From contig PXRO01000050.1 in assembly GCA_003021685.1 (NCBI GenBank), forward strand, positions 1 to 64,000: a stretch of DNA of 64,000 nucleotides, written 5' to 3'. The DNA comes from Halobacteriales archaeon QS_4_62_28 (lineage in GTDB: Archaea > Halobacteriota > Halobacteria > Halobacteriales > Haloarculaceae). The notes under the pieces were generated by a model. The model saw nothing but the letters and a program-made list of their open reading frames with translations. It had not been told where the DNA came from and ran no database searches. The translations under genes were made by a program, and so were the position numbers. This document shows, in pieces, positions 622 to 59,785 of the stretch. The stretch's first letter is position 1; each line of letters begins with the position of its first letter.

Positions 622-699
622 ATACTGCCGGCTGTCCATCTGTGAAGAGTTTCGTGAGCCGGGTCGCGAGAACCGTGACGCAGTGACAGCCAGCAGTAT
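622..699. repeat. Family B palindromic element, copy B1
   Basis: 78-bp palindrome with ends ATACTGCCGGCTGT and ACAGCCAGCAGTAT (one mismatch between arms) and an inner hairpin around a GTCGCGAG core. It is flanked by TG on the left and GA on the right. The same architecture, length and end sequence recur at 13165-13325 (B2, interrupted) and 59246-59325 (B3). It encodes nothing. It resembles REP-like or MITE-like palindromes moved in trans; no transposase for it lies in the window. Confidence 0.75.
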
Positions 700-806: not shown

Positions 807-900
807 CATCGTGAGTTACATTCCTACGATATGATCGAACAGGTCATTTTTTACATCGTGAGTTACATTCCTACGATATGATCGAACAGGTCATTTTTTA
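807..900. repeat. Perfect tandem duplication, 2 x 47 bp
   Basis: Positions 807-853 and 854-900 are identical over all 47 bases, with no spacer. Each unit begins with an imperfect palindrome whose ends read ATCGT and ACGAT and finishes with a T-rich tail. The absence of any divergence implies a recent slippage or recombination event, or selection on a repeated binding site. It lies in non-coding DNA about 350 bp from the nearest gene, so no target gene is obvious. Confidence 0.9.
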
Positions 901-7986: not shown

Positions 7987-8079
7987 CTACCACTCGCCAC
8001 CCCAGTCGCGTGACCGCGTGATCGCCTCGGGCCAGCGAATGTATCTGGCCTCGGCCGTTTCAGAGTTCTCCAGTGGCTC
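7987..8079 (-). pseudogene. C-terminal remnant of an FGGY-type kinase
   Basis: On the minus strand 30 codons and a TAG stop remain, ending IRWPEAITRSRDWGGEW. This matches the C-terminus of the glycerol kinase in this window (YGRWDDAVERSRDWAREE) at R-W, A, R-S-R-D-W, and is typical of FGGY carbohydrate kinases. The rest of the gene is missing. The fragment is cut off exactly where palindromic element A1 begins (8080). It is too short for normal ORF detection. I infer that a glycerol- or xylulose-kinase paralogue once stood here. Confidence 0.6.
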
Positions 8080-8161
8080 ATAGTGACTGTTGTAAGTCTT
8101 TGCGGGATTGATCGCACGATGACGTGCGACCGATCCGGTAATCAGTTACAACAGTCACTAT
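8080..8161 (-). repeat. Family A palindromic element, copy A1
   Basis: 82-bp palindrome. The outer arms ATAGTGACTGTTGTAA (8080-8095) and TTACAACAGTCACTAT (8146-8161) are perfectly complementary over 16 bp, and an inner hairpin pairs TCGCACG with CGTGCGA. Read on the minus strand it matches the copy at 59240-59402 at about 77 of 82 positions by eye. It fills the gap between the FGGY remnant and slyD. The slyD stop codon TGA is completed at its edge, giving TGA TAG TGA in frame. It could serve as a 3' hairpin for slyD. Confidence 0.85.
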
Positions 8162-8661
8162 CACTCGATATCGACGATGTGGAGATCGAACACGAGCGTT
8201 TTACCTGCCAGTTCGTGATTGAAATCGATCCTGACGGTACCGTCTGCAATAGCAGTTACGTCGCCATGCAGGTCGTTCTGTGCCTCGACGTGGAGACCGA
8301 CCTCCGGTGGCCGACCGACCATCGACTCGAACGTGTCTCGGTCGTACTCGCGCACCCGGTCAGGGTCGTACTCCTCGTAGGCTTTGGCAGGGGGGACGGT
8401 CACGGTCTGTTCGTCGTCCACCATCATCCCGACGACCGCTTCGTCGATTCCCTCGATGACTTCGTGGCTCCCGACGGTAAACGAAAGCGGTGAGAGTTCC
8501 TGACCCTCCGGATGGTCTGGATCCACGAGACCGTGCTCTCTGGCGACGGGCTGCTTCGAGGTCCCAAAGACAGTTCCGTCCTCGAACCGGCCCACGTACT
8601 CGACGTGGACTCGGTCACCGTGCTCGACGCGCTGGTCCTGTTCGTGGTGGTGGGCAGTCAT
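8161..8661 (-). CDS. slyD: SlyD-type FKBP peptidyl-prolyl isomerase
   Basis: 166 residues. The FKBP half-barrel is split by an insert-in-flap domain: GDRVHVEYVGRFEDGTVFGTS at the start, then SFTVGSHEVIEGIDEAVVGM, the inserted flap, and FNHELAGKTLVFDLHIVDI at the end. This is the archaeal/bacterial SlyD layout, a cytoplasmic prolyl isomerase and chaperone. The His cluster near the N-terminus (TAHHHEQ) could bind metal. The start codon overlaps the last 4 bp of the orc gene upstream, so the two are translationally coupled. The stop codon abuts element A1. Confidence 0.9.
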   Translation of the reverse strand: MTAHHHEQDQRVEHGDRVHVEYVGRFEDGTVFGTSKQPVAREHGLVDPDHPEGQELSPLSFTVGSHEVIEGIDEAVVGMMVDDEQTVTVPPAKAYEEYDPDRVREYDRDTFESMVGRPPEVGLHVEAQNDLHGDVTAIADGTVRIDFNHELAGKTLVFDLHIVDIE

Positions 8662-13164: not shown

Positions 13165-13325
13165 ATACTGCCGGCTGTAACTGTTTCATAGTGGTTGTTG
13201 TAGCTGTGTACCGGTATTCGCCGACCCAGGTCGGCGAAATGCCGAAGTGACTTACAACAATGACTATCAAGATATTCGCGACCCCGGGGTCGCGAAATCC
13301 GTCACAGACGGACAGCCGGTAGTAT
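13165..13325. repeat. Family B element B2, split by an A element
   Basis: The outer ends ATACTGCCGGCTGT (from 13165) and ACAGCCGGTAGTAT (to 13325) pair with one mismatch. The inner hairpin core is GCGACCCCGGGGTCGC. Removing the nested A copy (13188-13267) and one flanking C leaves about 80 bp, which aligns with the reverse complement of B3 (59246-59325), including GCGAAATCCGTCAC against GCGAAATCCGTCAC. This shows that A entered a pre-existing B. Confidence 0.8.
13188..13267. repeat. Family A element A2, nested in B2
   Basis: 80 bp. The arms ATAGTGGTTGTTGTA and TACAACAATGACTAT are imperfect complements (13 of 15), and the inner hairpin is TTCGCCGACC/GGTCGGCGAA. It is flanked by TC and CA, as are the other three A copies. 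Its arms are more diverged than those of A1 or A4, implying greater age. Confidence 0.8.
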
Positions 13326-35977: not shown

Positions 35978-36016
35978 ATTTATATATCTTTTCTCACGCT
36001 CTTGGGTTTTCCTATG

Positions 36017-36100
36017 CCGGTGGACGTACCGTTTGATACGTCTCGGCCGTCACGGACTTCCGTCCGACAGTATGAGTGTATCACTGCGTACGTCCACCGG
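36017..36100. repeat. Family C palindromic element containing half of a B element
   Basis: The outer arms CCGGTGGACGTA (36017-36028) and TACGTCCACCGG (36089-36100) pair over 12 bp. Inside, 36047-36073 equals one end of family B in reverse (ACGGACTTCCGTCCGACAG followed by TAT). A diverged copy of one C end lies at 38411-38438, on the other side of the photolyase gene. It is non-coding. Confidence 0.65.
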
Positions 36101-36405
36101 TATATTTCCCCAGTGGGAGAGACGATGCGGTGACGCTGTCGAGGTGTCTCTCATCAGCGGTGAGCAGTTACAACAAATAGTATGACAGCCTCGGTACTTG
36201 AAAGCGGGTCAAATCCGGAAGTCGATTCTGTGTCTTCGTGTCATCTTGAGCCATTTTCTTGCGTGGTTGCCGTCGGTCACAGGAACGATTTGTATCAGGT
36301 TCCTGTTCTCTATTCTGCACCAGGTGGTTCGTTCTCCGAAGTCTTGCCCCGCGTGGTACAATATGTCTTCCGACACACCGACAACGCTTATGATAATACA
36401 GACGT
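36101..36405. other. Non-coding region before the antitoxin gene
   Basis: 305 bp. A degenerate A-type end (GCAGTTACAACAAATAG) sits near 36164-36180. No convincing gene was found. A CTTATGATA box at about 36388-36396 lies at leaderless distance from the ATG at 36406. Confidence 0.45.
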
Positions 36406-54053: not shown

Positions 54054-54136
54054 ATAGGGATCCGTCGTCACTACGTACCGGTAGACACCGACCCGGAGTC
54101 GGTGCTATCCGGTAGTGGCTTACAACGGATCCCTAT
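54054..54136 (-). repeat. Family A palindromic element, copy A3
   Basis: 83 bp. The arms ATAGGGATCCGT and ACGGATCCCTAT are perfect over 12 bp, and the inner hairpin CACCGAC/GTCGGTG is intact. The arms differ from A1 and A4 in a compensated way (GTGACTG replaced by GGGATCC on both sides). Flanks are TC and CA. On the minus strand it begins inside the alpha-xylosidase stop codon, giving TGA TAG. Confidence 0.8.
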
Positions 54137-58228: not shown

Positions 58229-59197
58229 ATGGCACCATACACTGTCGTCGTCACAGACCACGACTTCACGGACCTGTCTATCGAACGCGAGGGGCTCGGC
58301 GATATCGCTGATATCGTCGAACTGACGAGTGCCGTCGGTGAAACCGTCGAGGGCGCCCACGAGACACTCGCCGGGGCCGACGCCGTCATCACGCTCCGGT
58401 ACGACCTCGATGCCGACGACATCGCCGCACTGTCGGAGTGTCGGGTCATCGCCCGGTATGGCATCGGCGTCGACAACATCGCCGTCGAAGCGGCCAGTGG
58501 CCGGGGTATTCCGGTCACGAACGTTCCTGACTACTGTATCGAGGAGGTTTCGACCCACGCGCTGACGATGTGTCTCGCGCTCGCGCGAGGCCTGCCAGCC
58601 TACGACGATTCCGTGGCCGCTGGCGAGTGGAATCGTGAGACCAGCGCGCCGATTCATCGCTTCTCGACACGGACCGTCGGTGTCGTCGGCTACGGCGCAA
58701 TCGGTCGGGCAGTGGGCGAGCGTGTCGCCGCTCTCGGCGCCGACGTGCTCGCGAGCGACCCGTTCCTCGACGACGAGGACGTGACCGACGACCCGGCGAC
58801 CCTCGTCGCGTTCGAGACGCTACTCGAACGGTCTGATTTCGTCACGATCCACTCGCCGCTGACACCAGAAACGAGAGAGATGTTCGACGCCGATGCGTTC
58901 GCGCGGATGCGAGACGACGCGTCGCTCGTCAACGTCGCCCGCGGTCCAGTCGTCGACGAGGCGGCCCTCCTCGATGCACTCGATAGCGGGGCACTCGCCG
59001 GTGCGGGCCTGGACGTGTTCCCAGAAGAACCGCCCCCTGTCGATCACCCGCTTCGGGACCACCCCGACGTGCTGACGACCCCCCACGTCGCGTGGTACAG
59101 CGAGGAAGCCGACGAGCAGCGTCGGGAGACAGTGGTCGACATCGTTCGCACCGCACTGGAGGGTAGCGAACCGTACAATGTCGTGAACGACCGGTGA
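58229..59197 (+). CDS. D-2-hydroxyacid dehydrogenase family (SlcC-like)
   Basis: 322 residues. NAD-binding GVVGYGAIGRAVGERVAALG, then catalytic Arg in LVNVARGPVVDEAAL, catalytic Glu in GLDVFPEEPPP and His in TTPHVAWYSEEA. Members include phosphoglycerate dehydrogenase, hydroxypyruvate reductases and (S)-sulfolactate dehydrogenase SlcC. No ACT domain is present, so it is not full-length SerA. It lies 25 bp after the dehydratase and 264 bp before a SuyAB/UxaA-type lyase. That neighbourhood makes either a sugar-acid or a sulfolactate role possible. Confidence 0.85.
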   Translation: MAPYTVVVTDHDFTDLSIEREGLGDIADIVELTSAVGETVEGAHETLAGADAVITLRYDLDADDIAALSECRVIARYGIGVDNIAVEAASGRGIPVTNVPDYCIEEVSTHALTMCLALARGLPAYDDSVAAGEWNRETSAPIHRFSTRTVGVVGYGAIGRAVGERVAALGADVLASDPFLDDEDVTDDPATLVAFETLLERSDFVTIHSPLTPETREMFDADAFARMRDDASLVNVARGPVVDEAALLDALDSGALAGAGLDVFPEEPPPVDHPLRDHPDVLTTPHVAWYSEEADEQRRETVVDIVRTALEGSEPYNVVNDR

Positions 59198-59239
59198 GCA
59201 GACAGGACAAAACTGTGTGGCTGGGGGCGAGGGAGAGTC

Positions 59240-59402
59240 ATAGTGATACTGTCGGACGGAAGTCCGTGACGGATTTCGCCACCCCGGGGTGGCGAGAATC
59301 CTCAGATAGTTACGTCCGACAGTATGACTGTTGTAACTGGTTACCGGGTCGGTCGCACGCCGTCGTGCGATCAATCCCGTAAAGACTTACAACAGTCACT
59401 AT
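59240..59402 (+). repeat. Family A element A4, split by a B element
   Basis: The left end ATAGTG (59240-59245) is separated from the remainder (GACTGTTGTAACTGG... to CACTAT at 59402) by nested B3. Rejoining the parts after removing B3 and one G recreates the A1 sequence without a gap (about 77 of 82 identical). Flanks are TC and CA. It fills most of the gap between the dehydrogenase and the lyase small subunit. Confidence 0.85.
59246..59325 (+). repeat. Family B element B3, nested in A4
   Basis: 80 bp. Ends ATACTGTCGGACG and CGTCCGACAGTAT pair perfectly, and the inner core CGCCACCCCGGGGTGGCG is a perfect hairpin. It interrupts A4 within the trinucleotide TGA. Its half sequence is also found inside the family C element at 36047-36073. 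Confidence 0.85.
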
Positions 59403-59461
59403 CAGTCCGGGCGACAGGTGGGAGAAAAGGTTATGAACCGGGCACCCCCTGGGCCTAGTGC

Positions 59462-59785
59462 ATGTCTGACAGATACCTGGAAGTAGTCGAACCTGTCGAC
59501 AACGTCGGGACCGCGCTGCGTGACTTCGAGACGGGCGAGACCGTCACCGTCGCCGTCGGAAACGAGGAGCGAGAGATCGAGGTCCACGACGATGTCGGAT
59601 TCGGACACAAGATCGCCATCGAGGACATCACAGACGGCGAGACGATAACGAAGTACGGCAAGAGCATCGGCAACGCGACGGCAGACATTCCCGTGGGCAC
59701 GTGGGTCCACGTCCACAACGTCGAATCGAACTACGGCCGTGGTGACCTCGCGGCAGAGAGCGAAGTCGAAGCAATCAACGAGTAA
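59462..59785 (+). CDS. SAF-domain small subunit of a UxaA/SuyAB-type lyase (SuyA-like)
   Basis: 107 residues, a stand-alone SAF domain: VEPVDNVGTALRDFETGE, VGFGHKIAIEDITDGE, KYGKSIGNATADIPVGTWVH, with the conserved VHVHN near the end. In altronate and galactarate dehydratases this domain is fused to the large domain. A separate small subunit is typical of (R)-sulfolactate sulfo-lyase SuyA and of archaeal split homologues. It ends 2 bp before the large subunit. A new promoter is likely, since element A4 separates it from the dehydrogenase. Confidence 0.8.
   Translation: MSDRYLEVVEPVDNVGTALRDFETGETVTVAVGNEEREIEVHDDVGFGHKIAIEDITDGETITKYGKSIGNATADIPVGTWVHVHNVESNYGRGDLAAESEVEAINE

What the first reader, a model, noticed from the sequence alone, without database searches (positions are those of the whole stretch)
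59240..59402. B inside A: an ~80-bp palindrome inserted into another palindrome family
A4 is interrupted after ATAGTG by a complete B element (59246-59325). Removing B plus one G restores an uninterrupted A that aligns gap-free with the copy at 8080-8161 (about 77 of 82, counted by eye). This gives an empty-site reconstruction from one genome and shows that B is a discrete mobile unit of about 81 bp.
Basis: seen in the sequence. Interest (0 to 1): 0.78.

Follow-up and report, generated by a model that had tools for sequence, protein, structure and literature searches.

The report
Nested stop-codon-docking palindromic mini-transposons
In a salt-loving archaeon, one roughly 80-letter hairpin-shaped jumping element has landed inside another; both belong to a large family of tiny elements that often insert exactly at the stop codons of genes and copy that stop codon, and the enzyme that moves them was not found.

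Summary
B is a 78-bp palindrome (59247-59324) inside an 80-bp palindrome A (59241-59401), flanked by a 3-bp duplication, TGA. Removing exactly 81 bp restores an A matching another genomic copy at 78 of 80 bases; every other cut from 74 to 87 bp gives at most 34. The window also holds the reverse nesting, A inside B, at 13166-13324. Both are non-autonomous elements with TA...TA ends and TNA target duplications (196 of 203 selected elements identical on both sides, 92 expected). Sister strains show empty sites. At 80 of 182 unique sites the triplet is a called gene's stop codon, mostly TGA. A weak GAC-TGA-GAC target preference accounts for this excess over nearby downstream sites and for much, not all, of that over all intergenic sites. 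The B end occurs in 27 of 292 haloarchaeal genomes, mostly in 77-79-bp elements with a covarying inner hairpin. No autonomous partner was seen, and three IS5/PIF-type transposase families gave no match over cut-off. The elements work like miniature inverted-repeat transposable elements moved in trans. Nesting itself is ordinary; stop-codon docking, the structured core and the missing mobiliser are unusual.

The parts
59238..59240 (.). left target duplication of the host A element (TCA)
   Evidence: sequence
59241..59401 (.). A element (A4), 80 bp net, interrupted by B after its 6th base
   Evidence: 78/80 to L042 after removing 81 bp
59244..59246 (+). TGA inside A, first copy of B's 3-bp target duplication
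59247..59324 (.). B element, 78-bp imperfect palindrome TACTGTCGGACGG...CGTCCGACAGTA
   Evidence: DNA fold z -8.1
59325..59327 (+). second TGA copy (target duplication of B)
59402..59404 (.). right target duplication of A4 (TCA)
8081..8160 (.). uninterrupted A element with TCA duplications (8078-8080, 8161-8163); the TCA is the stop codon (TGA on the minus strand) of a called gene on its right
13166..13324 (.). B-type element (TACTGCCGGCTGTAA ends, TGA duplications) interrupted by an A-type element
13189..13266 (.). A-type element (TAGTGGTTGTTGTAG...) with TCA duplications, inside the B-type element
623..698 (.). B-type element, 76 bp, TGA duplications
54055..54135 (.). related 81-bp palindrome (TAGGGATCCG ends), TCA duplications; TCA = stop codon (TGA) of a called minus-strand gene
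36012..36105 (.). another palindrome (CTATGCCGGTGGACGTACC ends) holding a truncated B right end (about 36047-36073)

Best explanation
A and B are two branches of one superfamily of non-autonomous, hairpin-forming miniature transposons of haloarchaea. They have TA...TA ends and often a TGTAA-like box 11-15 bp in, and are mostly 77-80 bp long. A transposase supplied in trans cuts the target with a 3-bp stagger at TNA (nearly always TGA or TCA, within a weak GAC-TGA-GAC consensus), joins the element, and repair duplicates the TNA. Haloarchaeal genes often end in GAC-TGA, so elements frequently land on stop codons and the duplication rebuilds the stop, leaving the gene intact. B jumped at the TGA that is bases 4-6 of an existing A, giving the nest. 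Shown: units, duplication, empty sites, target bias, stop-codon excess, covarying inner stem. Inferred: DDE chemistry, trans mobilisation, any role of the hairpin.
For: Exact 81-bp empty-site reconstruction. Among 203 elements with TNA on both sides the triplets are identical in 196, 92 expected if the middle bases were independent. Of 45 elements sought between two sister genomes, 5 had an empty site, 4 of them with one TNA kept; 3 show the 3-bp overlap directly. Pattern TSATACGGANNGTTGTAG: 177 hits in G001, 90 in G002, reversed control 0. B-type end in 27 of 292 class genomes, 10 of 77 genera, 1 control match. 80 of 182 unique sites at a called stop codon; for TGA/TCA, stop versus intergenic odds ratio 6.8, p 2e-27. 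RefSeq: 2 of 4 complete elements in two annotated 50-kb plasmid stretches begin right after an annotated CDS stop. Two-helix structure with 11 of 23 pairs changed on both sides, 0 of 500 shuffles as high.
Against: No transposase or autonomous copy with these ends was found. Of 293 A/B ends in Halomicrobium stretches 14 lacked a near partner; the longer end pairs that I looked into hold ordinary-looking genes. Of 151 further end matches, 18 had no near partner and none of these a distant one. Mostly fixed length, conserved core and covarying inner stem are not typical of internally deleted MITEs. The stop-codon counts rest on a home-made gene caller. A target matrix learnt from intergenic sites predicts a stop share of 0.36 against 0.49 observed over all intergenic sites, and 0.74 against 0.75 observed when only sites within 60 bp downstream of stops are compared: stop codons need not be recognised as such. 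Some 'intergenic' sites may be missed genes.
Confidence: 0.85

Rival explanations
1. REP-like hairpins moved by a Y1/HUH tyrosine transposase (TnpA-REP or IS200/IS605-PATE type) through single-stranded DNA.
For: Strong hairpins and covarying inner stem; no autonomous copy with the same ends seen; PF01797 Y1 transposases are present in 13 of 16 genomes tested.
Against: IS605-type elements and PATEs cause no target duplication (PMC3119063 passages), yet here the N of TNA matches on both sides in 196 of 203. G003, which has 78 B-end matches, has no PF01797 match at E<=0.01.
Confidence: 0.06
2. MITEs of an IS5-superfamily (IS1031 or IS427 type) transposase, whose IS1031 group makes 3-bp TNA duplications.
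For: A 3-bp repeat at TNA is stated for the IS1031 group (PMC12016507 passage); the target consensus resembles the palindromic PIF target (recalled).
Against: PF13340: 0 of 57 family genomes. PF13586: 0 of 57 over cut-off, one weak match in G027. PF13359: 0 of 16 over cut-off, one weak, stop-riddled match in G011. Of 91 PF01609 places in the genus 30 loci were read; I saw no A/B-like ends with TNA around any of them, and 61 were not read.
Confidence: 0.25
3. Functional intergenic RNA or terminator hairpins spread or kept by selection at gene ends rather than by targeted insertion.
For: 80 of 182 sites at stops; inner stem covaries; the residual stop excess over all intergenic sites could reflect loss of harmful upstream insertions.
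Against: Empty sites in close relatives and nesting show transposition; 4 of 5 polymorphic, hence probably young, insertions already sit at stops; B is not followed by a T-run; no Rfam family over threshold in the window except one tRNA.
Confidence: 0.1
4. Covariation in the inner stem is a by-product of template-switch correction of quasi-palindromes, not selection (compatible with the best explanation).
For: Such correction is an established mutational process (recalled).
Against: The internal loops at columns 15-28 and 51-64 stay unpaired in the consensus while the inner stem stays paired.
Confidence: 0.3

Closest known systems
Prokaryotic MITEs (general)
   Same: short, non-coding, terminal inverted repeats, target duplication, multi-copy
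   Different: near-complete palindromes of mostly fixed length with a covarying core; no parent transposon found here
Haloquadratum walsbyi SMR elements (HqIRS41, 80 bp; SMR-A about 110 bp)
   Same: haloarchaeal, about 80 or 110 bp, inverted repeats unrelated to known transposons, insert into other mobile elements (PMC3119063, passages seen)
   Different: SMRs are stated to cause no target duplication; these make a 3-bp TNA duplication. Sequences not compared (supplement not looked at)
IS5 family, IS1031 group
   Same: 3-bp TNA target duplication (PMC12016507, passage seen)
   Different: PF13340 and PF13586 gave no match over cut-off in 57 family genomes
REP/RAYT and PATE elements
   Same: short palindromes; for REP, no parent copy with the same ends (recalled)
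   Different: no target duplication in PATEs (PMC3119063, passages); clear TNA duplication here
PIF/Harbinger-type (Tourist) MITEs of eukaryotes
   Same: 3-bp duplication with T and A outside, extended palindromic target (recalled)
   Different: no PF13359 match over cut-off in 16 genomes; size and host differ

Membership tests
MITE (generic) | short, non-coding, terminal inverted repeats | tested here: met
   mostly 77-80 bp, 14-bp arms with at most 4 mismatches
MITE (generic) | target duplication of fixed length | tested here: met
   3-bp TNA, 196 of 203 selected elements identical; 20 of the first 30 B loci by eye, damaged copies included
MITE (generic) | mobile (empty sites) | tested here: met
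MITE (generic) | ends shared with an autonomous transposon | tested here: inconclusive
   none found, but only parts of the genomes were read; I use MITE in the descriptive sense
IS5 / IS1031-derived MITE | TNA 3-bp duplication | tested here: met
IS5 / IS1031-derived MITE | IS1031/IS427-type transposase in the lineage | tested here: not met
   PF13340 0/57, PF13586 0/57 over cut-off; that these two Pfam families mark the group is recalled
REP/RAYT or PATE | no target duplication | tested here: not met
   3-bp duplication
REP/RAYT | Y1 transposase in element-rich genomes | tested here: inconclusive
   present in 13 of 16, no match in element-rich G003
Haloquadratum SMR | inverted repeats unrelated to known transposons | tested here: inconclusive
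   no partner found here; no ISfinder available
Haloquadratum SMR | no target duplication | tested here: not met

The most novel reading that the evidence does not exclude
A haloarchaeal superfamily of self-standing structured micro-transposons (about 78-80 bp and about 104-108 bp classes with the same ends) that docks on stop codons through its target sequence. It is moved by an unidentified, possibly host-encoded single-copy transposase that recognises a TA/TGTAA end and the inner hairpin, rather than being decayed copies of an autonomous transposon.
Probability: 0.3. Interest if true: 0.72.

Novelty: new variant of a known kind. Interest (0 to 1): 0.5.

Why it matters
It gives a clean two-way nesting (B in A, A in B) with exact target duplications, and a simple way for a selfish element to be harmless: insert at TGA and copy the stop codon. 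Mostly fixed length, a covarying core and no visible autonomous partner in the material read raise a testable question: which enzyme moves them? Eight paper searches listed no paper that I recognised as describing these families; I saw listings, and passages of three papers only, and only open-licence papers are held.

Tried and rejected
1-bp duplication ('one G'): rejected, because T and A on both sides are part of a 3-bp TNA duplication. TA duplication (IS630 type): rejected, the empty A has only one TGA and no extra TA. Autonomous partner: PF01609 loci (30 read of 91 places), PF13586, PF13340, PF13359, unpartnered ends, long-range end pairs and sister-genome indels were tried without success. 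Longer end pairs: the 1128-bp unit in G002 (L126:9084-10211) carries an HTH gene and a DUF7509 gene; the 1366-bp pair in L208, the 759-bp pair in L123 and the 1179-bp pair in L201 hold ORFs that look by eye like a superoxide dismutase, a membrane protein and a hydrolase (names recalled, no Pfam run); the 3166-bp pair in L167 and a 2513-bp mixed A/B pair in g2 are neighbouring separate elements, contents not read. A TA-ended, TAA-flanked 1461-bp pair with unrelated ends in g1 overlaps the start of a 593-aa ORF that covers a PF01609 match but does not enclose it. A clustering of PF01609 proteins was too crude to use. Viral contigs: one B-end match, unpartnered, and 21 A-end matches, none with a partner at 75-81 bp (best 2 mismatches at 249 bp in L367); probably chance. 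Phages: no match for one B-type query. Pattern was mis-spaced by me. A preference for nesting was not tested. An extra recognition of stop codons beyond the target sequence: not needed near gene ends. Rows dropped: duplication and stop counts use only elements with TNA on both sides, TA ends and at most 4 arm mismatches, so damaged copies are left out; 32 of the 51 G000 loci were added to the contiguous stretches by hand to avoid overlap; 203 elements were reduced to 182 unique sites by flank similarity.

Full report
What is there. The window is part of contig C50 of a 2.64-Mb haloarchaeal genome. I take its genus to be Halomicrobium, because contigs of same-genus genomes have the lengths of Halomicrobium records. 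At 59238-59404 the sequence reads TCA, six bases of A, the 78-bp palindrome B, TGA, the rest of A, TCA. Cutting out exactly 81 bp gives an 80-bp A that is 78/80 identical to another copy; cuts of 74-80 and 82-87 bp give at most 34/80. The nest lies between a 2-hydroxyacid dehydrogenase gene ending at 59197 and a SAF-domain gene starting at 59462.

Families. B has at least 40 places in the genome (scoring stopped at 40 of 66 candidates) and A 22 at E<1e-10, the nested one included. Reading flanks shows TNA next to TA...TA ends: of the first 30 B loci, 20 have identical TNA on both sides by my reading, the rest have damaged or differing ends. A scan for TA-ended palindromes flanked by TNA in six contiguous stretches found 69 elements. 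Over all the material so scanned, 203 elements had TNA on both sides, and 196 of these had the same triplet on both sides (TCA 100, TGA 88, TTA 6, TAA 2) against 92 expected if the middle bases were independent. A and B look related: both often carry a TGTAA-like box 11-15 bp from the end, for example TAGTGACTGTTGTAA and TACTGCCGGCTGTAA. In sister genomes A-like copies end TACGGANNGTTGTAG or similar.

Mobility. Two same-genus genomes, G001 and G002, align at about 95-99% in collinear blocks. I sought 45 elements (20 and 25) at the matching site of the other genome: 5 sites were empty, 22 occupied by a gap of element size, 3 had some other gap, and 15 had no synteny in the stretches held. Four of the empty sites keep one TNA; the fifth (g2 82645) is less clean. 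Three of the indels show the 3-bp overlap directly. The end pattern of one A subfamily hits G001 177 times and G002 90 times, with 0 control hits. In the window, the reverse nest (A-type in B-type, 13166-13324) restores a 78-bp B-type element after removal of 81 bp; a second A-in-B, also after TTTCA, is in G001 (L171). In G001 a B-like and an A element also sit in tandem sharing one TCA. Thus composites arise independently; they are not one unit.

Target and stop codons. With a simple codon-usage gene caller, 80 of 182 unique sites have the triplet exactly at a called gene's stop codon, 83 are intergenic and 19 inside called genes. Among all TGA/TCA of the contiguous stretches 654 are stops, 4577 intergenic and 21342 coding; for elements at TGA/TCA (76 stop, 78 intergenic, 19 coding) stop versus intergenic gives odds ratio 6.8, p 2e-27. 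Within 1-60 bp downstream of stops there were 25 sites against 76 at TGA stops, background 885 and 654, p 2e-10. The target logo is roughly GAC-TGA-GAC. A matrix learnt from intergenic sites alone raises the expected stop share from 0.125 to 0.356 over all intergenic sites; observed 0.494 (76 of 154, p 3e-4); a matrix learnt from all sites over-predicts (0.650). Compared only with sites within 60 bp downstream of stops, the intergenic matrix expects 0.739 and 0.752 (76 of 101) is observed (a first figure of 0.82 used a narrower background and is superseded). So near gene ends the docking follows from sequence preference combined with how haloarchaeal genes end; the remaining excess over all intergenic sites may reflect selection against upstream insertions. 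Four of the five polymorphic insertions are at stops. RefSeq annotation of two 50-kb plasmid stretches gives 2 of 4 complete elements exactly at annotated stops, one about 100 bp beyond a gene end, and one inside a short hypothetical gene.

Structure. 29 B elements of 78 bp, chosen from 116 for diversity, fold as an outer stem, two internal loops and an inner 9-bp stem. With a 14-bp outer stem, eleven of 23 pairs have changes on both sides, seven of them in the inner stem, and no shuffle of 500 reaches the score; slid controls fall to 0.07 or less from 0.20. Single-strand DNA folds are strong, z -8.1 for B and -8.9 for A. Related sequences can exceed such shuffles without structure, as the tool warns, and template-switch correction is a rival source of covariation.

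Distribution. The canonical B end occurs in 27 of 292 genomes of the class and 10 of 77 genera, reversed control one match. Of 151 end matches in those loci and the viral ones, 115 are partnered at 71-79 bp, 16 at 104-108 bp, 2 at other lengths by weak partners, and 18 have no near partner; a palindrome with two matching ends counts twice. The 104-108-bp class has the same ends and a different interior. Another 107-108-bp class with TACTGTCGGACACAAG ends is in L312, L328 and L357.

The missing mobiliser. No element with these ends was seen to enclose a transposase in the material read, which is only part of each genome. IS5-group families PF13586 and PF13340 have no match over cut-off in 57 family genomes, with one weak PF13586 match; PF13359 none over cut-off in 16. 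PF01609 is common (91 places in 7 genomes) and 61 of these places were not read. Y1 transposases are in 13 of 16 genomes but gave no match in element-rich G003, and would not give a duplication. Insertion of the IS1031 group at TNA with a 3-bp repeat is printed in PMC12016507 (passage), so the outcome looks like that group although the membership test fails here.

Literature. For PMC3119063, PMC10969869 and PMC12016507 I saw search passages only. Haloquadratum SMRs (about 80 or 110 bp, no duplication) are the closest printed description; I could not compare sequences. No paper listed or 86-88 is one that I recognised as describing these families; most were seen as listings only, and the one literal sequence hit is an unrelated paper. 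The target of PIF elements, quasi-palindrome correction, REP biology and general IS-family duplication lengths are recalled, not looked up.

Noticed in passing
window 36012-36105: A different palindrome family (TATACCGGTGGACGTACC... ends) recurs in the genome, e.g. beside or interrupted by A/B copies in L006, L037, L050; here it holds a truncated B.
   Followed up: partly
L126:9084-10211 (G002): 1128-bp segment with A-type ends and TCA on both sides, carrying an HTH_20 gene and a DUF7509 gene; the right TCA is the stop codon of the next ORF.
   Followed up: partly
L264, L268, L274, L281, L285, L307, L311, L333, L336, L342, L345, L354: A 104-108-bp class with the same B ends and TNA duplications but a different interior; among elements with equal TSDs scanned none was 94-103 bp long.
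   Followed up: partly
L312:1815-1922, L328:2887-2994, L357:927-1033: 107-108-bp elements with TACTGTCGGACACAAG ends, close to the window's own B ends, and a different interior.
   Followed up: no
G001/G002 stretches: Other polymorphic short repeats: CTATAGTAACAATTG-type about 80 bp, and 441-478-bp insertions with about 11-bp overlap; possibly other haloarchaeal MITE families.
   Followed up: no
window 807-900: Perfect tandem duplication of 47 bp.
   Followed up: no
L202:7710-7895: B-like and A elements in tandem sharing a single TCA.
   Followed up: yes
G000 B copies versus relatives: Most of the own genome's B copies read have ends TACTGTCGGACG while relatives have TACTGCCGGCTG; both arms changed together.
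   Followed up: partly
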